Of a DNA stretch of 64,000 bases, positions 22,039 to 37,813 are shown piece after piece (the first letter of the stretch is position 1; every line of letters starts with the position of its first letter). Origin of the DNA: an uncultured Poribacteria bacterium (lineage in GTDB: Bacteria; Poribacteria; WGA-4E; WGA-3G). The stretch is taken from contig OX639973.1 of assembly GCA_951828385.1 (NCBI GenBank), forward strand, positions 4,517,200-4,581,199. The letters run 5' to 3'. The translations under genes were made by a program, and so were the position numbers. The notes beneath the pieces are model-generated. The model made no database searches, was not told the origin of the DNA, and worked only from the letters and a program-made list of their open reading frames with translations.

Positions 22039-25000
22039 ATGCAGATTCCGACACTCATTGACAATATAGAAGGGAACACCCTCCAAAAAGTTCTCGAAAG
22101 CCTCCTCGTAAAAAGTATCCGTTTAGATGTAGCGACCGGCACATTTGAAATTGGTGCATTTCTATCGCTCGGGAAAACGTGGCGGCACTTAGATGGGATT
22201 CGTCTCTTGATGGGTGACGAGACGACAAAACGCACAAAAGAGCATCTCATCAGAGCTCTCCGAGAAGTCACCGATGCCAATATTGAAGCCGAAAAGGAAC
22301 AGGATGACACCCTCCACGGGCTTGCTGCTGTACGCGAAGCAATTCGCACAGGACAAATTACCGTTCGCGTTTACGATAAAGCCAAGTTTCATGCGAAACT
22401 CAACTTAATGCACGCCCAAAATTCCAGTCCTGTTGACTTCGCTACCGTCGGCAGTTCCAACTTCACCCGTCCAGGCCTCACCCAAAACGTCGAGTTAAAT
22501 TCCTTCATCACAGATGCAACGCATATTGAAAAGCTCAGTGATTGGTATAATGCCCGTTGGGAAGAAGCCTCTGAGGTGAAGGAGGAACTGCTTCGGACGA
22601 TTGAACGACATCTTAGAGAATATCCACCGTTTACAGTTTATGCAAAAGCACTGCACACCTACTTTAGGGGACGCGAAAAACCTGCCGATGAGTGGGAAGA
22701 AAAGGAATCGGTGATTTACCGCACGCTTTCGCAGTACCAAAAAGATGGTTACCACGCCGCTCTCCAGATAGCCGATACATGGAATGGCGCGCTGATCTGT
22801 GATGGTGTCGGTAGCGGGAAAACGTACATCGGCTTGATGTTACTTGAACGCTATCTCAGAGACAACAAACGCGTCCTGCTCATCACCCCCAAATCGATTG
22901 AGGAAAGCGTTTGGAAAAGTCAGATTAATCGCCAACTTGAACCGAAGTATGGTCGTCTACTCCGCGAGCACTACGATATAAGTCGACATACCGATTTCGG
23001 TCGCCAAGGTCGGATAAGCGAAGGTAATCTTAAGTACTTTCGAGAACACAAGGACGTTATTATTATAGACGAAGCACACCATTTCCGAAATCCAAGTTCC
23101 AACCGCGGACGGCTTCTCATGGAACTTGCCAGAAACAAAAAACTCTATCTCCTCACCGCTACGCCGATCAATAACAGTGTCAACGATATTTCTCATCTGA
23201 TTAACTATTTCGCGCAGGGCAACAGCGGGCACTTCGCCAGCATCGGCATGCACGATTTCCGTAAGCACTTCCGCGATATTGACAAGAAGCTTGAGGATGA
23301 GAACGTCGAGATTGCCGAACAGGTTGAAGAAGACGATCTCCTTCGCCAAAATCCTGTGCTAAAACAAGTGCTCATTCAACGGAGTCGCAAATATATCAAG
23401 GATGCTGAGATGGAATCAGGAACACATATCCTCTTTCCAAAACGTGTTATAGAGCCTACCGTAGATTACTCACTCCGTCGAGTTTATCGAACGCTCTACG
23501 ACGAACTGCAAGCTGCCTTCGACCGACATGATCCGTTTCTCAATCTGGCAATTTACAACACTGTCAAGTATCATAAAAATCCAGAAAAACAGATTGAACA
23601 GCGCGAAAAGCAGGTTATCGGTCTTATCCGGACGCTTGTGCTCAAACGTTTAGAAAGTTCATGGAAAGCGTTTGAAGTAACTGTTGAAAATCTGCTTCTC
23701 AAGATGACAGGCTGGCTCGAGAAATACGCCCCAGAACGTTTTGAAATGTGGAAAGGCACAAATCGGAGGTGGTGGAGCGTTGTTCAGGAACACATACTTG
23801 AACGACTCCAAGAGGATGGCATCTCACGACAACGTAACCGAGTAAACCTACAGCGTTTTGTTGATTCCAATCCATCTGAAGAAGAAGACGACCTCGCTTC
23901 AATTGAAACCGAAGACGATTTCATTCTGGACGACCATGATGTAGACATGTTATTTGACGATGTTGTGGACGATATGAACTTCTTGACCGGTCTCCTCAGT
24001 CGAATCTATAGGCTTTTCTATGCTGACGAGTTGGCTAACGAACCTGATACACAGCAAGATGATAAACTCCAGCAGCTTCTAAAACTGTTAAAAAAGCATC
24101 CGAATAAGAAAATACTGATCTTTAGCGAATTCTGTGACACGGCTCGCTACCTTGACAAACAGTTGCAGCAAGCAGGTTTTAAGAATATAGAACAAATTGA
24201 TAGCCGACGCAAAGTAAACCGTGAAGAAATTATTGAACGATTTTCGCCATGCTACAACAGTAGATCCCCTGAAAGTGTTGAACCGGTTCAAACGCTAATC
24301 ACGACAGATGTCCTCGCTGAAGGTCTCAACTTACAGGACGCTTCTATTATCATTAATTACGATTTACATTGGAATCCAGTCCGACTTATGCAGCGCATCG
24401 GTAGATTAGACCGACGGCTTGACCCAGCAATTGAGGTGCTCCTCAACCGTACAGACCCTACCGTTCACGTCTGGAATTTCCTGCCACCAACGGAGCTTGA
24501 TGACATTCTCAGACTCCGAAGACGCGTTGATGGCAAAATTCTTCGGATCAGTCGTACCCTCGGTATTGAAGGGCAGTTTGTTTCGCCTGATGATCCTGAC
24601 GAGACAATCCGACTTTTCAATGAACGCTATGAGGGCACGGAAAACACTGAGGAACTGATGAATCTTGAACGTCAACGCATCTCTGAATTACACCCTGAAC
24701 TGTGGAGACAACTGCCAAATCTTCCGATGCGTCTTTTTTCTGGCAAAGGTGTAGACGACGAGCCGCCACCTTTCCTCAATCGCGATGGTGAATCTGTCCC
24801 ACTTGATCGTGTCGGTAACCCTGGAGTTTTCTGTTGTTATGAGATGCCAAACGGCGAAATTAAGTGGTATTTCTACGATACTTACATAGAAGACGTTATT
24901 GATGACATTGAGGCAGTCTGGCCCGAGGTGCGTTGTGATATCGAAACGGCGTGCTGGACTGAGGACGGACCGGGAGCACTCGTGGATGCCCGTAAAAAAA

Positions 25001-25092
25001 TTGAACGCTACATACGCAACAAGTATCTCAAGCATATACAGACATCCATGGGTGCAAAATCTAAACTTATCGCATGGATGGAAATTTCATGA
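22039..25092 (+). CDS. PLD-nuclease/SNF2-type helicase fusion (defence or restriction protein)
   Basis: This 1017-residue protein joins two parts. Residues 1-200 form a phospholipase D-like nuclease domain with one HxK motif (KFHAKLNLM, His118/Lys120) followed by GSSNFTRPG. Residues about 230-850 form a superfamily 2 SNF2-like helicase: Walker A GVGSGKTYIG (about 254), DEAH box IIDEAHHFRN (about 343), LLTATPINN (about 371), and motif VI in MQRIGRLDRR (about 785) after LAEGLNLQDA. The C-terminal 150 residues are unassigned. PLD-helicase fusions next to an N6-adenine methyltransferase are typical of restriction-like defence loci. The helicase would move on DNA and the PLD part could cut unmethylated DNA. 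RBS is weak. It is followed 31 bases later by a small gene and then the methyltransferase. Confidence 0.88.
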   Translation: MQIPTLIDNIEGNTLQKVLESLLVKSIRLDVATGTFEIGAFLSLGKTWRHLDGIRLLMGDETTKRTKEHLIRALREVTDANIEAEKEQDDTLHGLAAVREAIRTGQITVRVYDKAKFHAKLNLMHAQNSSPVDFATVGSSNFTRPGLTQNVELNSFITDATHIEKLSDWYNARWEEASEVKEELLRTIERHLREYPPFTVYAKALHTYFRGREKPADEWEEKESVIYRTLSQYQKDGYHAALQIADTWNGALICDGVGSGKTYIGLMLLERYLRDNKRVLLITPKSIEESVWKSQINRQLEPKYGRLLREHYDISRHTDFGRQGRISEGNLKYFREHKDVIIIDEAHHFRNPSSNRGRLLMELARNKKLYLLTATPINNSVNDISHLINYFAQGNSGHFASIGMHDFRKHFRDIDKKLEDENVEIAEQVEEDDLLRQNPVLKQVLIQRSRKYIKDAEMESGTHILFPKRVIEPTVDYSLRRVYRTLYDELQAAFDRHDPFLNLAIYNTVKYHKNPEKQIEQREKQVIGLIRTLVLKRLESSWKAFEVTVENLLLKMTGWLEKYAPERFEMWKGTNRRWWSVVQEHILERLQEDGISRQRNRVNLQRFVDSNPSEEEDDLASIETEDDFILDDHDVDMLFDDVVDDMNFLTGLLSRIYRLFYADELANEPDTQQDDKLQQLLKLLKKHPNKKILIFSEFCDTARYLDKQLQQAGFKNIEQIDSRRKVNREEIIERFSPCYNSRSPESVEPVQTLITTDVLAEGLNLQDASIIINYDLHWNPVRLMQRIGRLDRRLDPAIEVLLNRTDPTVHVWNFLPPTELDDILRLRRRVDGKILRISRTLGIEGQFVSPDDPDETIRLFNERYEGTENTEELMNLERQRISELHPELWRQLPNLPMRLFSGKGVDDEPPPFLNRDGESVPLDRVGNPGVFCCYEMPNGEIKWYFYDTYIEDVIDDIEAVWPEVRCDIETACWTEDGPGALVDARKKIERYIRNKYLKHIQTSMGAKSKLIAWMEIS

Positions 25093-25702: not shown

Positions 25703-28690
25703 ATGCCATACATAACACCAAACAATATTCATAACATCCGTGACTTTGACACCCTCTTAGATTTTCTACGCGAGGAACTTGATTGGCCTATTCCCGAAAA
25801 CGTTGAACTCGAAGATATTGCCTTCCCTTGGACCGCCGAAGACCTTGATCTCGATGAACTGACTGAAGAATTGGTCATTAACTGCCAACAGCTGCCCCCT
25901 TTCTCGACCAGTCAACCGACGCTTGGAATTTTTGAGGACACTCAGCCGTGGGGTATCTTTTTTCTCCAATTCGACAGCGAAAAGGTCTATCGCACTGCGC
26001 TCCGTCGTGTCCTCCGTGGACTTGTTGAAAGGCGAGATCGGGACGCAAGCCTACCTGCATGGAAACACGACCATCTCCTCTTTATCTGTACCACAACCGA
26101 CTATCAACGCTTTGCCTTTGCACACTTCGCTGCCACTGCGGAAAACTGGCACCGTGCTGTGCTATCTATCTTCTCTTGGGAACAGGGAGATACACATATC
26201 CGTACGCTCTGTGAATATAACCTTCCCGCGCTCGCCTTTCCAAGCGACGGCTTTTCAGATGACACAGCATGGTTAAAAGCATGGCAAGAAGCATTTGATG
26301 TAGAGACAGTTACCGATAAATTCTTTCGTGATTACCAAAGTGTCTTTGCCCAAGTAGAAGCCGCTGTTGAAGGTATTCCAGAAGACGAAACAGAAACACG
26401 CCGACTCTACACGCAGCGTCTCTTTAACCGATTGATGTTTCTCCGTTTTATTGAAAAGAAAGGATGGCTTACCTACAACGGTAATCGCGATTACCTCCGT
26501 TCCCTCTTTGATGCAACAGAGGCACAAACAGACGAAAACTTTCTCAATGACCGACTCTATTGGGCATTCTTTCATGGGCTTGGTAACCCTGCGAATTTAC
26601 CTCAGGATTTGGCTGAGGCTGTTGAACGGCGCGGTGAAGTCCCGTTTCTCAATGGCGGACTCTTTGAAATGCAGGAATATGACAACCGCAACGCTGTCCA
26701 TATTCCAAATGACAAATTTTCCGAAATCCTGAAACTTTTTGAGCGGTACAATTTCACGGTAACCGAATCCACCCCCCTTGATATTGAGGTGGCAGTCGAT
26801 CCAGAGATGCTCGGAAAGGTATTTGAAGAACTCGTAACCGGTAGACACGACACCGGCAGCTACTACACACCGCGCCCAGTGGTCTCCTTTATGTGCCGCG
26901 AGAGTCTAAAAATCTGCCTCCAGAATAAAACCGACGAGACACCGGAAACCCTCAAGGCGTTTGTTGATGATGGGGATGCAACGGAAATTCGCAATCCAGA
27001 GAAAGTGTTACAGGTGCTGCAGACGCTTCGGATATGCGATCCGGCGTGTGGCAGCGGTGCCTATCTACTCGGTATGATGAGCGAGTTGCTCCGCTTGCGA
27101 GACGCGCTCTTCCAAAGTAAAGAGATCGACTCAAAATCAACCTATCAACGCAAACTTGACATCATTCAGCAAAACCTCTACGGCGTGGATAAGGACGAAT
27201 TCGCTGTCAATATCGCTATGCTCCGCTTGTGGCTCAGCCTTGCAGTCGATTACGAAGACGATACCCCAGAACCATTGCCCAACCTCGACTATAAAGTAGC
27301 AACGGGGGATAGTTTGACCGGTCCCGCACCCGAACAAATCAGTCTCGCGAGTCACTTGATTGACCAGATTCAGGAACATCAAGCCGAATTTCTGGTCACC
27401 TATACTGATCCAGAGAAACAGAGGCTCCGGGAGGAGATTGCTGAACTCAGAGGACATCTCCAAGAATGGCAAGCAAGCGATGATGAATTTGTCTGGCAGG
27501 TTGAGTTTCCAGAAGTATTCCAAGAGGGCGGATTTGATATTGTTATTGGTAATCCGCCCTACGTGCGTCAAGAACTCATCAGGCCGATTAAGCCGACTTT
27601 AAAAAGATTGTTCCCGGAAGTCTATATAGGAACTGCGGACCTCTACGTCTACTTTTACAAACGTGGAACGGAGCTGCTTCGTGTTGGTGGAGTTCTCACG
27701 TATATCTCCTCTAATAATTTTCTGAGGGTAGCCTACGGGGCAAGACTCCGATTGTTTTTTACTAGTGAAGTGTGCTTACATAGACTTCTTGATTTTGGAA
27801 ATGTTCCAGTTTTTGGCGCGAGTGTAAACACTTGTATTGTCCTTGTTGAAAACACTACACCGGGTGGAGAGGCATTTTTCGCCGCTACTTTTCGTGACGA
27901 GGCGGATGTTTCTCGTCTCTCTGATGCGTTTCAAGGGCGTGCTTTTTCCATGAATACCGGGGATTTATCACCTGATGGATGGGCATTGACATCACCGGAG
28001 GCACTGAAATTGCTCAGGAAACTAAAAGACATCGGAGTGCCGTTGGGAGAATATGTGGATATGGGTTTCTATATGGGGGTGAAAACTGGATGTAATGCTG
28101 CATTTGTCATCGATGAATCTGTAAGTCGGCAGTTAATTGCTGAAGATATTAACAGCAGTGAACTCATAAAACCGGTGCTGAGAGGTAGGGGGCTTAGCAG
28201 ATGGAAAACCGAGTCAGTGAAAGAATATCTGATAACAGTAGCGAGCAGTGTAAATAGAGAGTGGCCCTGGTCAGATGCAAGAAACGATTTAGAAGCAGAA
28301 CGGATTTTCGCTGAAACCTATCCAGCAATCTATCAACATCTGAGCAATTATCGGGAACGGTTGATTGCACGCGATGATCAGGGAAGATTTTATTGGGAAC
28401 TCCGTTCTTGTGCCTATTATACCGAGTTTGGAAAGCCGAAAATTGTTTATACACAAACAGCAAAATTGCTCTACGCGTGCTATGACACAGGGAAGGCATT
28501 TGGATTAAACAATGTATACTTTATACCTACCAATGACCTTTCCCTACTTGCTATTTTAAATAGTCAGCTTTTTGATTGGTACGCTCGGCACAAATTTTAT
28601 AGTCTTAATGATCCCTGGGCGGGTGGAGGTTTGCAGTTTTTTGCACAGTACATGGAGAAGGTCCCAATTGTACTGCCTACGGTTTTTTAG
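25703..28690 (+). pseudogene. Eco57I-like N6-adenine DNA methyltransferase, 3' end cut off by insertions
   Basis: The open frame gives 995 residues. It has an N-terminal domain (1-155) shared with the preceding gene, a linker helical region, a methyltransferase core with motif I DPACGSGAYLLGM (about 446) and motif IV IVIGNPPYVRQEL (about 616), and a C-terminal target-recognition-like region (GVKTGCNAAFVID, RGRGLSRWK). The last residues MEKVPIVLP run straight into a TAG that belongs to the IS3 end. The normal C-terminal helical tail of this family is found 2.5 kb downstream at 31184-31369. All catalytic motifs are intact, so the truncated protein might still methylate, but the full-length gene is broken. 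Confidence 0.88.
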
Positions 28691-28747
28691 GCCACTCCCT
28701 AAAACAAGATTGTGCTATAATACAATCTCACTGAAAGGAGTTATCTA

Positions 28748-29032
28748 ATGGCCAAACGAAGAAAATTCACCTCCGAGTTTAAGACGGAACTCGTTCTGGA
28801 GGTTCTTAGCGGTGCGACTTCTCAAGCAGAAGTGTGTCGGCGTCATAATCTCAATGAGGACCAACTCTCGAAATGGAAGCAGCAGTTTCTTGAAAAAGCC
28901 CCCTCGCTGTTTGATTCTACTGATAAACCGTCCAGCGATGCGGAGAAGCGTATCACTCACCTTGAGCATCTCGTTGGGAGAATGGCCGTGGCGTTAGACA
29001 TCCAAAAAAAACTATTGACATGGTTGGACTAA
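28748..29032 (+). CDS. IS3-family transposase OrfA
   Basis: The 94-residue protein has an N-terminal helix-turn-helix of the IS3/IS911 type (RRKFTSEFKTELVLEVLSG, QAEVCRRHNL, LSKWKQQFLEKA) and a leucine-zipper-like C-terminal helix. OrfA binds the element ends and, fused to OrfB by frameshifting, forms the active transposase. RBS AAAGGAG precedes the ATG. Confidence 0.92.
   Translation: MAKRRKFTSEFKTELVLEVLSGATSQAEVCRRHNLNEDQLSKWKQQFLEKAPSLFDSTDKPSSDAEKRITHLEHLVGRMAVALDIQKKLLTWLD
29004..29011 (+). other. Programmed -1 frameshift site of the IS3 element
   Basis: Eight consecutive A residues include the heptamer A AAA AAA in the correct phase (codons AAA at 29006 and 29009) just before the end of orfA. 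orfB is in the -1 frame and overlaps orfA, as needed for production of OrfAB. A slippery run in the right phase is seen; frameshifting itself is inferred. Confidence 0.7.
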
Positions 29033-29868
29033 CGTTGTCTGAGAAGCGATGCTTCATTTCGGCATTGCAAAAGGAGCATTCCGTGCGAGATATTTCTGGC
29101 ATCCTCGGTGTCAACCGGGGTAGTTTCTATTATCACCGCCAAGAGGATCCGTCCGAAGCCGTCCTGCGATCAGAAATAGAGAAACTTGCTGGACAGTATC
29201 CGAGATACGGGTATAGGCGTATCACGCAGTTGCTACAGCGTCAGGGATACACCGTTGGAACCCGACGCGTCGCCCGGTTGATGAAAGAGAAGAATCTCTT
29301 AGTCTCCGTCAAGCGTGCCGGTCAAACCACAAAATCGCTTCAGGCGGATAAACCTTGGAGCAACCTGCTCGAAAACCTTGACGTTTCTCATCAGGATCAG
29401 GTCTGGGTTTCCGATATTACATACGTCCGTCTCAAGGGACGCTTCATCTATCTCTGCCTGCTCATGGATGTTTTCACCCGGATGATCAGAGCTTGGCAAC
29501 TCAGTCAGCACTTGAACCAATCTCTGACGCTCAAACCGCTGAAAGAGGCATTGGACCACAGCGTCCCGGAGATTCATCATTCCGATCAAGGCGTGCAGTA
29601 TCTTTCAAAGGTCTATATTACCACGCTCGAAGCACATGGCATTGAGATTTCCGTCGCCCGTCGCGGATGCCCTTGGGAGAACGGATATGCTGAAAGACTC
29701 ATCCGCACGCTCAAAGAGGAAGAAGTTGACATCAATGACTATCAAAGCATCACCGAGGCGAGAGATCGCATCGGACATTTTATCGAACAAGTGTATAATC
29801 AGAAACGTCCACATTCGGCGTTAGGATATTTGACACCTATCGAATTTCAACGACAAAACTTGTCTTAA
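29020..29868 (+). CDS. IS3-family transposase OrfB (DDE integrase)
   Basis: The 282-residue reading frame has the IS3 OrfB layout: HTH_21 region (RYGYRRITQLLQRQGYTVG) and an rve integrase core with the DDE residues in VWVSDITYV (first Asp), IHHSDQGVQY (second Asp) and WENGYAERLIRTLKEEEV (Glu). It ends YNQKRPHSALGYLTPIEF, as usual. The catalytic set is complete, so the element may still be active. Confidence 0.93.
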   Translation: MVGLTLSEKRCFISALQKEHSVRDISGILGVNRGSFYYHRQEDPSEAVLRSEIEKLAGQYPRYGYRRITQLLQRQGYTVGTRRVARLMKEKNLLVSVKRAGQTTKSLQADKPWSNLLENLDVSHQDQVWVSDITYVRLKGRFIYLCLLMDVFTRMIRAWQLSQHLNQSLTLKPLKEALDHSVPEIHHSDQGVQYLSKVYITTLEAHGIEISVARRGCPWENGYAERLIRTLKEEEVDINDYQSITEARDRIGHFIEQVYNQKRPHSALGYLTPIEFQRQNLS

Positions 29869-29926
29869 CTTTGCTAAATTGTGGCCTAAATAAGCGTATG
29901 CACTTCACAATAGCCGATGTCAATAA

Positions 29927-30124
29927 CCCCCGACTGAAGTCGGGGGCTTGTGCGAAGCGTATACCAAACGTTCACTCCACAAGTTAAACTATTTTCTACA
30001 GTAAAATATCGTAATATCTGTGGTGGTTCACAAAAGTATTTAGGATACTCCCCTCGTCCTATATCAATGCCGATATTACGATCTGGAAGGGGCAATATAC
30101 AACCCGTAAGGGAGATTACAAACG
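29927..30124 (+). ncRNA. Candidate omega RNA (HEARO-like) of the IsrB element
   Basis: The 198 bases before isrB contain no gene but several nested pairings. These are the 8-bp terminal hairpin (29927-29946), CTTGTG/CACAAG (29947-29952 with 29978-29983), and an 11-bp perfect long-range stem ATCGTAATATC (30008-30018) with GATATTACGAT (30072-30082). IscB/IsrB proteins use an RNA transcribed just upstream of their gene, with the guide at its 5' end taken from sequence outside the element. Here that would be bases just left of 29927. Structure is seen; function is by analogy. Confidence 0.65.
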
Positions 30125-31153
30125 ATGTTTGTTCCGGTGACGAGTCAAACAGGTCAGAAGTTGATGCCTACGCATGCTAACAAGGCGGGCGTGCTGATTA
30201 AGAAAGGTTTAGCCACGCCCTATTGGTCTAATGGGATATTCTGTATCCGGCTTAACTATGCTACCGAAGACGCATACACACAAGATATAGTCGTCGGTGT
30301 AGACCCCGGTAGCAAGAAAGAAGGCTTTACCGTCAAATCAGAGGCACACACTTACTTGAATGTGCAAGCAGACGCTCACGGGACTGTCGGCAAGAAAGTC
30401 GCGAAGCGTAGTGAGTTGCGTAGAAGTCGGCGTTCACGAAAATGTCCGAATCGCAAACAGAAAAAGCACAATCTATCTAATAGAGACCGTATCCCCGCAG
30501 GCACGCGTGCGAGATGGGATTGGAAGTTAAGGGTTCTTGATTGGCTTTCTAAACTCTATCCACTCACGCATGTCTGCGTTGAAGATATTAAGGCGCCGAC
30601 GATACAACGTGCAAAGAAGTGGAATCAATCGTTTAGTCCTTTGGAAGTCGGTAAACAGTGGTTCTATAGCGAAATCCAAAAGCGTTGGGAACTCTACACT
30701 TTACAGGGTTGGGAAACCAAAGAGATACGGGATAGGTTAGGTCTCAAGAAGTCTTCAAAGAAACTATCAGAAACCTTTGACGCACACTGTGTAGACAGTT
30801 GGTGTCTGGCACATCATAGCGTAGGCGGTTTGGATATACCCGATAACACGACGCTTCTGTGTATCTCACCGATACCGATAAAACGCAGAGAGTTGCATAG
30901 GCAACAGGAAGCGAAAGGCGGTAAACGCACACGGGTGGGCGGAACTCTATTAGGGAAAGGATTGGTCAAAAACACACTCATTCGGCATGTCAAATACGGA
31001 TTAGCCCGACTCGCTGGCGTTAACGCAAAGGGTTTGTTTTCAATATACAGTATGGAAAACAAACGATTAACCACGGGGGCGAAGCGGTCTGATTTCAGAG
31101 TGCTAACACGTCTTAACTTTTACTACAAGAGCGGTGTTTCCTCCCCTGAATGA
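30125..31153 (+). CDS. isrB: IsrB, HNH-less IscB-type RNA-guided nickase
   Basis: The 342-residue protein has the IscB/IsrB order: an N-terminal PLMP-type domain (VPVTSQTGQKLMPTHANKAG), RuvC-I with Asp60 (VGVDPGSKKEG), an Arg-rich bridge helix (about 94-114, RRSRRSRK), RuvC-II with Glu153 (VCVEDI) and RuvC-III with His221/Asp224 (FDAHCVDSW). About 65 residues separate RuvC-II and RuvC-III, with no HNH motif, which distinguishes IsrB from IscB (HNH inserted there). Known IsrB proteins of about 350 residues nick DNA using an omega RNA. The stop codon lies within the right-end hairpin. AAGGGAG lies 12 bases before the ATG. All RuvC residues are present. Confidence 0.85.
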   Translation: MFVPVTSQTGQKLMPTHANKAGVLIKKGLATPYWSNGIFCIRLNYATEDAYTQDIVVGVDPGSKKEGFTVKSEAHTYLNVQADAHGTVGKKVAKRSELRRSRRSRKCPNRKQKKHNLSNRDRIPAGTRARWDWKLRVLDWLSKLYPLTHVCVEDIKAPTIQRAKKWNQSFSPLEVGKQWFYSEIQKRWELYTLQGWETKEIRDRLGLKKSSKKLSETFDAHCVDSWCLAHHSVGGLDIPDNTTLLCISPIPIKRRELHRQQEAKGGKRTRVGGTLLGKGLVKNTLIRHVKYGLARLAGVNAKGLFSIYSMENKRLTTGAKRSDFRVLTRLNFYYKSGVSSPE

Positions 31154-31183
31154 ATTCAGGGGTTTCCACACCGAAGATAAGAG

Positions 31184-31369
31184 ATGACATCAACACAGAA
31201 AGCAGAGTTGTCACGTCTCGTCAAGCAGATATTAGCAGACCCGCAAAGCGATGGCGTACGTGATGTTGAGCGGGAGATAGACGAGTTGGTGTATCAGCTA
31301 TATGGGTTAACAGATGCGGAGATTGAACTGATTAAGCAGACATATCGTGATGCTGGCATGGAGGTGTAA
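31184..31369 (+). pseudogene. Detached C-terminal tail of the methyltransferase
   Basis: The 61 residues (STQKAELSRLVKQILADP near the start, then EREIDELVYQLYGLTDAEI) are the helical tail that normally ends Eco57I/type IIG methyltransferases. They match what is missing from the frame that stops at 28690. Between the two parts lie an IS3 element and an isrB element. An in-frame TAA lies 6 bases before the ATG, so it is not translated as part of the larger protein. It could only be made as a separate peptide if at all. Confidence 0.85.
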
Positions 31370-31411: not shown

Positions 31412-33772
31412 TTATGCCTCTTCGGTCTCCAAAAATGCTCGGAAGGCTTTATGTATCTGAAAACGTTCTTCTGTTCCTTTCCTGTTTGCGAATTTCCTAG
31501 CCATAATTTTGTTCTTGCGAGAATTCTCCGGTTCTTCAGAAAAAATAAAACTATTTTCTCTTACTTCTATTCCGAGGAATGTTAAGTCATGAAGAAGGTC
31601 AATTGTAGATTCTATCCTGTCTTCTGAAATCCCTGCTAATTTTAATGTTTCTGTTACTTGCTTCTTCCGCAAAATAACGGGCATTCCAGCAAACTCATAG
31701 ATGGCATCTTCAAGATTTATATCGGGTGAAGTATTTTCTGCCTTAATACTATCAAGGACTTGCGAGAAATACTGTTTCTCTGCCTCAAATATATCTTCTT
31801 CTTCTATCAATGGATGCCTTTTATTAATAGCTGTTGTTACTGCAGTATTTACGAAATAGATAATGTCTCTTGGTCTTTTCAAGATAGTATTGATTATATA
31901 TTCTCTAGTGGGTATTCCATTAACGGTTGAGCAGAAGTATTGGTCCCATAAGATAGTCGATTCTGGTGTATCAAACGAGGAACAAAATCGTTCTTCTATT
32001 ATGGACAACAGTTCTGGATCATTCCACTTTAGTAGAGAATAAGTCATTTTGTCTGGTTCATTGGCAACTTGCCTAATCCTATAAAAAATGTCGGACCGGA
32101 GAAAAATAGTAAGACTAAGTTTTATTCTTTGCTGTTTACTACTTTGCTGTTGAAGTTCTATAGGAAGTTGTTTGGCTACCTCTAGTAAACTCCACAAAAT
32201 TTCAGACAAGGCATCTATGTCGTTTTGCCGTTCCCACGCCTGGTCCAAATTATCAATTAGAATAGCGATCCTTTGCTCATTTGATAAGAGATTGCCTAGT
32301 TCTATCCGCAATTGTCTCAAAGTGTGACTGTGCAAAATCTCAGAGACTGAAGAATGAATGTTTTCATCATTGGATCCTTCTATTTTTTCTTTAATGTCTT
32401 GAGTACATATCTCTAATCTTGTGGAAAAATCTTCACAAATTATTTCCCTATTTTTCTCAGCAAAGTTGAAGAAACGCTCTGCTGCGTCGGTACTCCGAAC
32501 CGATGGCGGATTGTTATAAACCGTATGGGCAATTTCAGTCAGGAGCAAAAATTTCCATAGGCTTTCTACTGCAGATACTTTATCTTTTCGATGTTGATAC
32601 TGTTTTAGAAGATCTACTACCGCTAGCATCTGGGATCGTTGTGGTTTTATTACACATACCACATTTCGCTGGTGCCTATTGAGTTCATCTTTTAATTTTA
32701 TCAAGTTAGCAGTTTTGCCTGACCCTTTGCGACCAACAAATAGAGTTTGATTACCTCTCACAGCATCGTCGTATGCAGCTGTTGGAATAAAGTATTTCTC
32801 TACTAGACTTTCTTCTTCATATTCAGCGACATGATCTCCAAAACGTAAACTCCTAAGATCTCTAGCTAATTTTGCTGTATGTTGAACCCCAGTTGCTTCT
32901 TGTATGGTTTTCAGAGTTTGTTCTATAGGAGGGATCCACTCGTTCAAATATCTAAGTGCCTCTGCTGCTGTTTTATAAGATCTAAGGTCATCACGAAAAT
33001 CAATAGGTGGTAGGAAATCGTCCTCGGCAAGCATAAGCAACGGCTTTTTCCAACCATAAGCCATACCACAAACCAAGGCGTGTCGAGCAGTTTGAATGTA
33101 TCCACCTTCTCTTTTAAGACTCATAAAGTGGCAAACCATACCGTTACAGTTAAAAACATTGCTGCCATACCAAGCCAACGACTGGACAGTGGATTCACGA
33201 GGGTCATCAATAGTAATTCTTTTGGCGAATGTTTTTTGAAGTAAATTAGACACGCGGACAGCGGCTTGGTCTTCGTGCTCTCTTTTCAAGTGAAAAATGC
33301 TCGGATAACTATTATCTTTTAGACTAGGTTTTATTTCATCCTTGAAAAGTGTATTCTCTATGCTCGCGTAGGGTCTTTCCTTATGGAAACCCTTAACGAT
33401 GTCATCGGAATTGCAGCACCGAGTGTATGCAACGGTACTCAAAACTCCCAACTGATTAAACAATTTTTTTGCTTCTGTATATGTGTCATCAAATATTAAC
33501 CAGATCCGTTTATCATGAGCTATTGCATAGCCGAGTTCAAACATCACATTGTGGTTCAATCCTGTCAAGTCGGCAAAGAAGAGTTCAGCTTCGTCGATTT
33601 CTTGACGGATGGTTTTGATAATAAAATTTCCGCTGGGATTGCATTCCTCCCAAGATTTTATATTTACTAGCCTACTTTTATTTATTTTAGGAACAGCGTC
33701 TCGGATTGCCTCTTTTAAAGTGTCTCCACTTGATGGATACGCAAAAAATGCTTTTGGAGTTGTGTTTGCCAT
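31412..33772 (-). CDS. P-loop ATPase (Sll1717-like) with two N-terminal deoxyribosyltransferase/TIR-like domains
   Basis: A promoter at 33857-33885 lies inside the longer open frame (to 33910). The start is therefore ATG 33772 with AAAAGGA upstream, giving 786 residues. Residues 1-150 form a nucleoside 2-deoxyribosyltransferase/TIR-related fold: FFAYPSSGDTL, a conserved Trp-Glu-Glu, and AELFFADLTGLNHNVMFELGYAIA with the Asp and Glu typical of these folds. A second similar unit spans about 185-300 (HALVCGMAYGWKKPLLMLAEDD). Then comes a STAND/AAA-like ATPase with Walker A LFVGRKGSGKTANLI (about 343) and Walker B AILIDNLDQAW (about 502), and a helical C-terminus ending in a winged-helix-like region. 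This resembles P-loop ATPases of the Sll1717 group. The sensor-effector design suggests an NAD- or nucleotide-acting defence protein; this is inference. Confidence 0.75.
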   Translation of the reverse strand: MANTTPKAFFAYPSSGDTLKEAIRDAVPKINKSRLVNIKSWEECNPSGNFIIKTIRQEIDEAELFFADLTGLNHNVMFELGYAIAHDKRIWLIFDDTYTEAKKLFNQLGVLSTVAYTRCCNSDDIVKGFHKERPYASIENTLFKDEIKPSLKDNSYPSIFHLKREHEDQAAVRVSNLLQKTFAKRITIDDPRESTVQSLAWYGSNVFNCNGMVCHFMSLKREGGYIQTARHALVCGMAYGWKKPLLMLAEDDFLPPIDFRDDLRSYKTAAEALRYLNEWIPPIEQTLKTIQEATGVQHTAKLARDLRSLRFGDHVAEYEEESLVEKYFIPTAAYDDAVRGNQTLFVGRKGSGKTANLIKLKDELNRHQRNVVCVIKPQRSQMLAVVDLLKQYQHRKDKVSAVESLWKFLLLTEIAHTVYNNPPSVRSTDAAERFFNFAEKNREIICEDFSTRLEICTQDIKEKIEGSNDENIHSSVSEILHSHTLRQLRIELGNLLSNEQRIAILIDNLDQAWERQNDIDALSEILWSLLEVAKQLPIELQQQSSKQQRIKLSLTIFLRSDIFYRIRQVANEPDKMTYSLLKWNDPELLSIIEERFCSSFDTPESTILWDQYFCSTVNGIPTREYIINTILKRPRDIIYFVNTAVTTAINKRHPLIEEEDIFEAEKQYFSQVLDSIKAENTSPDINLEDAIYEFAGMPVILRKKQVTETLKLAGISEDRIESTIDLLHDLTFLGIEVRENSFIFSEEPENSRKNKIMARKFANRKGTEERFQIHKAFRAFLETEEA

Positions 33773-33856
33773 TATATCTATGTCCTTTTTTGACGATTTT
33801 GCCTTGCTACTGTTATCGGTGGAGTGAAATGGAAAACATACTATATGCGCGCCCAT

Positions 33857-33885
33857 ATCATAGCACATTTCGGCAGAAAAATCAA
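33857..33885 (-). promoter_or_regulatory. Promoter for the ATPase gene
   Basis: On the minus strand, TTGATT (33885-33880), a 17-base spacer and TATGAT (33862-33857). Its position shows that translation must start downstream, at 33772. Confidence 0.6.
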
Positions 33886-34071
33886 GTGTATTTTGTTTCA
33901 GCAAAATCACTTAGTACTCGGTCTTAAATCCCGGCAGTGCGCGATGTGTTCATTTCTGACATATATTGATTGGTGTGTAAGTTGTATAGGTTGAGAAATG
34001 CAAAAATTAAGTTAACTCAGCAAGTCTATTGAAGGTGTAAGATAGCGCGGGTGAGGAGACTCGCTTTTCCT

Positions 34072-36345: not shown

Positions 36346-37813
36346 CCCCTTGCTTTAGCTGGGGAATGTAGACACCGCCTTAGTGAATGAGACCAAACCT
36401 TCGGAAAAAAGATTTGACATTGTGTTGAAAGTGTGGTTTAATTAATGGTATCACACTGACAGACATAATCAGCGTTACCGCCCCCTTTCCAGTAACGGGC
36501 GGGGACCCCGGTAGCGTGTCTGTCTACCTACTGATTAGAGGTTAAAAGTGTGGAGTGTGAATCTCTATGCGAAACACGAAACATAAACTTTTTTACGATA
36601 AGACGTTGAAGTCTCTGCACACTGATTTTGATATTTGTGGTATTGTGCGTAATCACTTCCTTGGGTTGTGTATGCGATATAAACGCCGGTATGGTAAGGG
36701 ACTTTCGTATTCCAAGATGTCTGCTCATTTGACGAAACTCAAGAAACTTGAGAAATACAAGCATTGGAATATCCCTTACTCGTGGTCGTTACAAAATGTT
36801 GTGAAGCGTTTAGCACAATCCTTTCGCGAAATGAAAACGCTCGGTAGAGGCCACCCGAAGTTCAAGGCATGTAAGAAACACAAGGGCATGACGTTTAGCG
36901 GTAAACAGGTCAAAATAGAGAAAGTATTGGACAAGCAAAAGCATAAAAGAAATCACCCAACGTATCGTATGCGTCTCAATGGGCGTTGGTATCGTTTTGC
37001 GCTGCATAGAAAGATAGCGGGCGAAATCACACAAGTTCAAGTGACACGAGACGCTCTCGGAGACGTGTATATCACGCTCACTGAAGACTATAACGAAGTC
37101 AAACCCGAACCCAAGACGGGTCAAGCTGAAGGGTTCGATATGGGTATCAAAGACTTCCTGACTGGCAGTGACGGACACCGATATACTTCTCCTATGTTTT
37201 ACAAACAGAACGCTGATAAGTTAGCCAAAGCACAAAAAGTTCATTCCCGCAAGGTCAAAGGTTCTCATAACAGAGAACGCGAACGTAAGAACGTTGCGCG
37301 TATCCATAAAAAGACTGAAAATCAGAGAACAGACCACCATTGGAAACTTGCGATAGACCTCTGTCAAAAGTTTGATATTTTGTTCTTTGAAGACCTGAAC
37401 CTTCGCGGTATGAAAGCCCTCTTTGGTAAACAAGTTTCGGACCTTGCCTTCGGTGAGTTCATGCGGAAACTCAAACACCAATCTAATAAACGCAATCGTT
37501 TTGTATTTACGATTGGACGCTGGACACCGACGACAAAATGCTGTTGTGTTTGTAATCATAAAAACGACAATCTCACGTTGGAAGATAGAGACTGGACGTG
37601 TCGAAAGTGTGATACACACCTTGACCGGGACCAGAACGCTGCTATGAACATTCTTAAGGAAGGGGTAGCTTCCTTTGGCTTAGGAGTTGTAAGACCTATC
37701 GTTTTGCTTGGCAAGATTGTAGGCTACTCCGTTGAAGCGTCCAGTTCGCTTCTGAAATCCACAAATGCTTTCGCATAAAGTTTGCGGAGGTTTCCCCATG
37801 CTTTAGCTGGGGG
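36346..37813 (+). mobile_element. IS200/605-type element carrying tnpB only
   Basis: The ends show related imperfect palindromes: CCCCTTGCTTTAGCTGGGG at 36346-36364 and CCCCATGCTTTAGCTGGGGG at 37794-37813. The shared loop TGCTTTAGCT also occurs at 62463 and, reversed, at 49265. No tnpA is present. The element lies between the two ends of a ggt gene. In this class the omega RNA covers the 3' end of tnpB and the right end, and its guide is the host sequence after the right end, here the ggt tail from about 37814. Confidence 0.8.
36567..37778 (+). CDS. tnpB: TnpB, RNA-guided nuclease of IS200/605 elements
   Basis: The 403-residue protein has the full TnpB pattern: N-terminal wedge/REC region, RuvC-I Asp191 (EGFDMGIKDFL), RuvC-II Glu275 (LFFEDLNLRGM), a zinc ribbon CxxC (326/329) plus CxxC (345/348), and RuvC-III Asp355 (LDRDQNAAMNI). 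Asp191 has the same number as in the studied ISDra2 TnpB. TnpB cleaves DNA next to a short motif using an RNA from the element's right end, which helps keep the element after excision. It looks intact. RBS is weak (GTGTGAATCTCT). Confidence 0.92.
   Translation: MRNTKHKLFYDKTLKSLHTDFDICGIVRNHFLGLCMRYKRRYGKGLSYSKMSAHLTKLKKLEKYKHWNIPYSWSLQNVVKRLAQSFREMKTLGRGHPKFKACKKHKGMTFSGKQVKIEKVLDKQKHKRNHPTYRMRLNGRWYRFALHRKIAGEITQVQVTRDALGDVYITLTEDYNEVKPEPKTGQAEGFDMGIKDFLTGSDGHRYTSPMFYKQNADKLAKAQKVHSRKVKGSHNRERERKNVARIHKKTENQRTDHHWKLAIDLCQKFDILFFEDLNLRGMKALFGKQVSDLAFGEFMRKLKHQSNKRNRFVFTIGRWTPTTKCCCVCNHKNDNLTLEDRDWTCRKCDTHLDRDQNAAMNILKEGVASFGLGVVRPIVLLGKIVGYSVEASSSLLKSTNAFA

What the first reader, a model, noticed from the sequence alone, without database searches (positions are those of the whole stretch)
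29889..31162. IsrB nickase with a visible omega-RNA-like leader next to an IS3 end
The 342-residue protein has all RuvC residues and bridge helix but no HNH, so it is IsrB rather than IscB. The 198-base leader has an 11-bp perfect long-range stem and two terminal hairpins. The predicted guide would come from bases just left of 29927, that is the 38-base strip between the IS3 end and the element. This allows a prediction of what this element recognises or once recognised.
Basis: partly seen in the sequence, partly recalled or inferred. Interest (0 to 1): 0.8.

Follow-up and report, generated by a model that had tools for sequence, protein, structure and literature searches.

The report
Start-codon-targeting IsrB element, spare RBS-like end
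The gene is a real RNA-guided DNA-nicking mobile element (IsrB) in a sponge-symbiont bacterium, and comparing it with about 120 relatives suggests that these elements jump in exactly at the start codons of genes and carry a replacement ribosome-binding signal at their right end, so that the invaded gene could still be translated.

Summary
The IsrB is real: RuvC residues intact, no HNH, DtIsrB as nearest solved structure, and a leader with a covarying omega-RNA fold. The element is 29919-31183. The 38-base "strip" is 18 nt of the neighbouring IS3's own end, 11 nt of the interrupted host gene (a type IIG restriction-methyltransferase) and 8 nt of the element. The present guide is therefore chimeric; only its TAM-proximal 11 nt come from the target.

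Eighty independent insertions in Candidatus Poribacteria show something larger. The right-flank TAM is usually ATGA, GTGA or ATGG. At 28 of 72 ATG/GTG sites it is the start codon of a gene whose Shine-Dalgarno (SD) lies just left of the element (background 4.7%). The right end has a purine SD-like motif, a strongly covarying stem, then 7-10 nt to the ATG. With the stem excised, its anti-SD pairing equals that of native SDs. Viral and cyanobacterial IsrBs also sit at start codons and show bridged SDs, direct SDs or stop/start overlaps. TAM letters covary with IsrB TAM-reading residues and transposase guide bases. I infer translation-preserving insertion at start codons; translation was not tested. 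The window copy is an intragenic exception with a weakened motif.

The parts
28669..29907 (+). IS3-family element with TG..CA ends; TSD CAAT at 28665-28668 and 29908-29911
   Evidence: transpos_IS3 275 bits; five other copies share both outer 18-nt ends, three of them with visible 3-bp TSDs
25703..28668 (+). 5' part of the interrupted type IIG restriction-methyltransferase gene
   Evidence: PADLOC REase_MTase_IIG E=6e-102; intact in relatives
29908..29918 (+). 11-nt host-gene remnant: the only target-derived part of the present guide (TAM-proximal)
   Evidence: compared with intact homologues
29899..29918 (+). predicted 20-nt guide as it stands: IS3 end plus gene remnant (chimeric)
   Evidence: inference from DtIsrB guide position and length (PMC9581776) and the left end at 29919
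29919..31183 (+). whole IsrB element, GTCAATAACC...GATAAGAG, no target duplication
   Evidence: ends shared by three near-identical copies at different sites and by 80 insertions; HEARO model starts at 29919
29927..29946 (+). left-end hairpin CCCCCGACTGAAGTCGGGGG
   Evidence: helix 2 in A2: 94.4% paired, 6 of 7 pairs with changes on both sides
29919..30124 (+). omega-RNA scaffold
   Evidence: 92.5% of cells paired, 22 of 42 pairs with changes on both sides, 0/500 shuffles
30008..30018 (+). 5' arm of the 11-bp long-range stem (3' arm 30072-30082)
30125..31153 (+). isrB gene, 342 aa; RuvC D60, E153, H221, D224; TAM-reading R314 and T317
31127..31131 (+). AAGAG: position where most relatives have AGGAG (SD-like), weakened in this copy
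31132..31173 (+). right-end outer stem CGGTGT/ACACCG enclosing hairpin 31143-31162, which contains the isrB stop codon
   Evidence: outer helix 97.6% paired, 5 of 6 pairs with changes on both sides
31184..31187 (+). TAM ATGA in the right flank
31184..31369 (+). 3' remnant of the type IIG gene (MTSTQKAEL..GMEV)

Best explanation
This is an IS200/IS605-type IsrB element, moved in trans by Y1 transposases, that makes an RNP of IsrB and an omega-RNA whose guide is the DNA just left of the element. The transposase target and the IsrB TAM are the same letters: NTG plus A or G on the top strand, that is, often a start codon. Elements that persist tend to sit between a gene's Shine-Dalgarno and its ATG. 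There the host promoter would transcribe guide, omega-RNA, isrB and gene together. The right end supplies a new translation signal for the gene: a purine SD held about 9 nt from the ATG across a hairpin, or in other lineages a direct SD or an isrB stop overlapping the start. The guide then equals the SD region of the same gene without the insertion, so IsrB would nick empty alleles, which fits a homing or retention role. Shown: ends, TAM, covariation, site preference, motif conservation and spacing, empty sites. Inferred: transcription from the host promoter, translation through the bridged SD, nicking, homing. The window copy itself is an intragenic exception with a decayed motif (AAGAG) and a guide cut by an IS3.
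For: TAM among 80 distinct sites: ATGA 56, GTGA 10, ATGG 6, ATAA 5, TTGA(TAA) 2, ACGA 1; SD plus ORF of 60 codons or more at 28/72 against 442/9409, p=6e-19. Empty sites are contiguous at SD|ATGA in relatives, with 1-8 guide mismatches at the MR_MLE locus. Downstream ORFs include a serpin, an ABC transporter and a TonB receptor. Median anti-SD energy: native SDs -7.2; right end with stem excised -7.3; right end as is -1.0; background -1.8 to -2.1; p=7e-30. AGG at the motif's Arg 53/58 against 10.7% elsewhere, with codon constraint rising at that codon. Outer stem covaries. Viral loci: 30/39 borders at an ORF start against 31.5%; 29/32 start-site viral or cyanobacterial elements have a bridged SD, direct SD or stop/start overlap. 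Annotated CDSs start exactly at the TAM in Leptolyngbya, Stanieria and Microcystis phage Ma-LMM01. TAM letters covary with IsrB residues: third letter p=3e-10, fourth p=5e-6, and with right-end inner-loop bases read as the Y1 guide. T4 genes 25 and 38 are proven hairpin-bridged SDs (PMC3014915).
Against: No expression data. The ATAA-TAM subgroup (L093, L117, L122, L125, L126) keeps an AAGG-like motif although ATAA is not a start codon, and three Y1-only elements (L135, L138, L140) have AGGG or AAGG at the same foot, so the motif may have another role. Start-site use did not differ significantly between copies with and without the motif (27/65 against 1/7, p=0.24). Three of 32 viral or cyanobacterial elements show no rescue feature. 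Relatedness of sequences inflates the p-values. For viral loci the border was partly chosen by eye.
Confidence: 0.6

Rival explanations
1. Ordinary IsrB element. Start-site enrichment is only purifying selection: insertions inside genes are lost and compact intergenic regions leave few NTGA sites. The right-end purine motif and outer stem serve transposase binding, not translation.
For: Y1-only elements in the same genome share the right-end stem architecture; transposase guide and TAM covary; the ATAA subgroup keeps AAGG.
Against: The motif lies outside the stem and does not track the transposase guide: ATAA copies have a different guide and keep AAGG. Four Y1-only elements (L133, L134, L136, L137) lack it. 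Cyanobacterial and some viral elements instead carry a direct SD or a stop/start overlap, which transposase binding does not explain. The stem-excised spacing (median 9) lies within the native range of 4-12.
Confidence: 0.3
2. Start-site insertion exists to switch the downstream gene off, or to make it depend on isrB translation; the right-end structure is a translational attenuator.
For: The isrB stop codon lies in the right-end hairpin loop in most copies and overlaps the next start codon in several viral elements.
Against: Pairing strength and spacing match functional SDs.
Confidence: 0.1
3. One reading: the guide is the 38-base strip and predicts the current target.
For: Correct side of the element for an IsrB guide (PMC9581776).
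Against: 18 nt of the strip are the IS3 end and 8 nt are the element itself.
Confidence: 0.03

Closest known systems
DtIsrB (Desulfovirgula thermocuniculi, PDB 8dmb, PMC9581776)
   Same: Size, PLMP, RuvC, bridge helix, no HNH; NTGA TAM; R323/Q326 correspond to R314/T317 here; best sequence hit (E=7e-29) and best fold hit (E=1.3e-24)
   Different: 28% identity in the structural alignment; shorter omega-RNA scaffold (206 nt against 262 nt). A word search of that paper finds no mention of start codons.
HEARO RNA, Rfam RF02033
   Same: Match starts exactly at the element's 5' end and spans the model
   Different: 24.3 bits, well under the gathering score of 83
IscB
   Same: RRXRR/PLMP N-terminal half, leader-encoded guide
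   Different: No HNH here; NCBIfam IscB model below cut-off
T4 genes 25 and 38 split ribosome-binding sites (PMC3014915)
   Same: SD and AUG brought to working distance by an intervening hairpin
   Different: Ordinary phage genes, not a transposon end

Membership tests
IsrB | RuvC catalytic residues intact | tested here: met
   D60, E153, H221, D224 invariant in 42 sequences
IsrB | No HNH domain | tested here: met
IsrB | PLMP domain and bridge helix, about 350 aa | tested here: met
   342 aa, KLMPT motif, RRSRRSRK helix; model helix 88-102
IsrB | Upstream structured omega-RNA | tested here: met
   covariation
IsrB | NTG(A)-type TAM on the far side of the element from the guide | tested here: met
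   inferred from insertion sites, not from cleavage
IsrB | RNA-guided nicking of the non-target strand | not testable with these tools
   needs protein and RNA
IS200/IS605 superfamily | Subterminal hairpins, fixed insertion motif, no target duplication | tested here: met
   Hairpins and motif; empty sites show no duplication
IS200/IS605 superfamily | Mobilised by a Y1 transposase | tested here: inconclusive
   No tnpA in the element; 12 Y1 genes elsewhere in the genome, some with similar ends
IscB | HNH domain between RuvC-II and RuvC-III | tested here: not met
HEARO RNA RF02033 | Score at or above Rfam gathering threshold | tested here: not met
   24.3 against 83 bits
Split (hairpin-bridged) ribosome-binding site | SD and AUG brought to functional spacing by a conserved hairpin | tested here: met
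   By sequence only, for the family; not met for the window copy itself (AAGAG)
Split (hairpin-bridged) ribosome-binding site | Translation depends on the hairpin | not testable with these tools
   needs a reporter

The most novel reading that the evidence does not exclude
IsrB elements form a class of translation-preserving mobile elements. Their TAM and insertion site is the start codon, their guide is the invaded gene's own Shine-Dalgarno region, and their right end carries a replacement ribosome-binding site (hairpin-bridged, direct, or stop/start coupled), so the element would borrow the gene's promoter without silencing the gene.
Probability: 0.55. Interest if true: 0.8.

Novelty: new variant of a known kind. 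Interest (0 to 1): 0.62.

Why it matters
The published IsrB TAM (NTG, NTGA or NTGG) would get a biological reason: it is the start codon. It would explain how a transposon lacking its own transposase and an apparent promoter spreads in dense phage and symbiont genomes, would make the guide a conserved translation-initiation region able to recognise empty alleles in relatives, and gives a natural TAM code (R/Q reading G/A at the third letter; R against Q or T reading G against A at the fourth) useful for choosing compact nickases.

Tried and rejected
Rfam at gathering threshold found nothing. A joined-flank DNA search of the own genome found no second copy of the window site, so protein homologues in relatives were used. 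The first regex for right-end TAMs misplaced several and was redone. An automatic stem finder picked an alternative pairing CAGGAG/CTCCTG in about ten copies; that pairing is not conserved in CGGTGT-type copies, so the alignment-defined stem was used. IscB relatives with HNH showed no clear start-codon junction in a quick look. The PMC searches found no open paper describing start-codon insertion of IsrB/IscB; Weinberg 2009 and Altae-Tran 2021 were not read. From memory only, and unchecked, the HEARO paper may have mentioned ATGA/GTGA insertion sites.

Full report
The window lies in a single-contig 6.66-Mb genome. Its 80 best IsrB relatives, at 66-89% identity, are all in Candidatus Poribacteria records. 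The genome holds ten isrB matches: three near-identical copies (one in the window), four more intact ones at 69-79% identity, one copy split by a frame break (two matches) and one short fragment.

The protein. The 342-aa ORF matches Pfam RRXRR, only the first half of the NCBIfam IscB model and below its cut-off, and DtIsrB as the best solved chain (E=7e-29). An AlphaFold model (pLDDT 81.8) has DtIsrB as best structural match (E=1.3e-24, TM 0.71/0.74). The RuvC residues D60, E153, H221 and D224 are invariant in 42 sequences. There is no HNH.

The ends. Three near-identical copies at different sites share everything from GTCAATAACC to GATAAGAG and nothing outside except ATGA on the right. Hence the element is 29919-31183. 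Rfam HEARO aligns from 29919, though far below gathering score. The leader's fold is supported by covariation: 92.5% of cells paired, 22 of 42 pairs with changes on both sides, none of 500 shuffles as high, and slid controls at 33-41% paired.

The neighbourhood. Upstream is a type IIG restriction-methyltransferase gene that is whole in relatives, reading ..YMEKVPIADRTAAQKAELSRLVEQIL... Here it is broken twice. Comparison with other copies shows that the IS3 has outer ends TGTACTGCC.. and ..GCACTTCA, so it spans 28669-29907 with duplication CAAT. Only CAATAGCCGAT (29908-29918) of the original target remains next to the omega-RNA. The present guide is therefore half IS3 and half gene. Which insertion came first is not known.

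Insertion sites. In 80 distinct insertions from this genome and the relatives, the right flank begins ATGA in 56, GTGA in 10, ATGG in 6 and ATAA in 5; the rest are TTGA(TAA) and ACGA. At 28 of the 72 ATG/GTG sites an open frame of at least 60 codons starts at the TAM and an SD lies in the last 18 nt of the left flank. The rate at other such sites in the same DNA is 442/9409 (p=6e-19). Ten downstream products were scanned; eight have Pfam domains, among them a serpin, an ABC transporter, an enolase-superfamily enzyme and a TonB receptor. Relatives have contiguous empty sites at two tested loci, with the guide region differing by 1-8 of 20 nt.

The right end. An outer stem (97.6% paired; 5 of 6 pairs with changes on both sides) encloses the transposase-type hairpin. 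Just 5' of the stem most copies have AGGAG or AGGA; just 3' of it come 7-10 nt and then the TAM. This part overlaps the isrB C-terminus, but protein coding does not account for the motif: the Arg codon is AGG in 53 of 58 against 10.7% elsewhere, synonymous constraint rises at that codon, replacements at the residue keep AAGG, TGGAG or CGGAG, and in L107 and L112 the isrB stop precedes the motif. Excising the stem changes the median anti-SD energy from -1.0 to -7.3 kcal/mol, equal to native SDs at -7.2; background with the same excision is -2.1 (p=7e-30). The stem-excised spacing has median 9 against a native median of 6, range 4-12. T4 genes 25 and 38 are proven examples of this geometry (PMC3014915).

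Other lineages. Of 39 viral-contig IsrB loci, 30 end at the start of an open frame of at least 50 codons (background 31.5%, p=7e-9). Of 32 viral or cyanobacterial elements at start sites, 26 have a direct or bridged SD and three more have only an isrB stop overlapping the start. In annotated records of Leptolyngbya, Stanieria and Microcystis phage Ma-LMM01 the next CDS begins exactly at the TAM.

TAM code. In Poribacteria the residue aligned with DtIsrB R323 is R with G and Q with A at the third TAM letter (p=3e-10). The residue aligned with Q326 is R with G, and mostly Q or T with A, at the fourth (p=5e-6). The alignment to R323/Q326 rests on motif spacing (K-R-x-x-Q) beyond the reported DtIsrB alignment, so it is an inference. 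Viral elements, scored by eye, agree for the fourth letter (p=1e-4). This matches the published Q326R result. The same TAM letters covary with bases beside the right-end hairpin: TNTCC with ATGA, TNTTG with ATAA, TCCCC with ATGG, CTTCC with about half of GTGA. I read these as the Y1 transposase guide on the bottom strand; this is inference from IS608-type biology (own knowledge). Both machines would thus read one site.

How it works, and limits. I infer that elements are kept where the TAM is a start codon because the right end lets the gene still be translated, while the host promoter makes guide, omega-RNA and isrB. Neither transcription nor translation was measured. The AAGG motif persists in the ATAA subgroup and in some Y1-only elements, so part of its conservation may have another cause. 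The window copy has AAGAG, sits inside a gene and has a damaged guide; it is a poor example of its own family's rule.

Noticed in passing
25703-28668 and 31184-31369: Type IIG restriction-methyltransferase gene broken near its C-terminus by IsrB and IS3; relatives keep it whole.
   Followed up: yes
22039-25092: PLD-domain plus SNF2 helicase just upstream of the IIG gene (PADLOC C3a139 HKD+Snf2, E=6e-70), possibly one defence operon.
   Followed up: no
31412-33910, minus strand: 832-aa ORF with weak matches to ATPases of defence systems; its N-terminus looks by eye like a nucleotide-sensing domain followed by an ATPase.
   Followed up: no
36567-37778: TnpB-family ORF (guided_TnpB above cut-off, IS200_TnpB 219 bits below that model's cut-off), so two RNA-guided families lie within 7 kb.
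   Followed up: no
L133-L140: Y1-only IS200-like elements; several share the IsrB right-end stem architecture with tnpA on the opposite strand: candidate mobilisers in trans.
   Followed up: partly
L177, L185, L195, L203, L209, L213, L215: isrB has no stop of its own inside the element; its TGA comes from the flanking ATGA, overlapping the next gene's start.
   Followed up: partly
L130: An ATAG-TAM IsrB with Q and R at the two TAM-reading positions, as the code predicts.
   Followed up: partly
G000 C1:4960216-4961308 (L008/L009): isrB copy split by a frame break at an SD|ATGA site before an ABC-transporter gene.
   Followed up: partly
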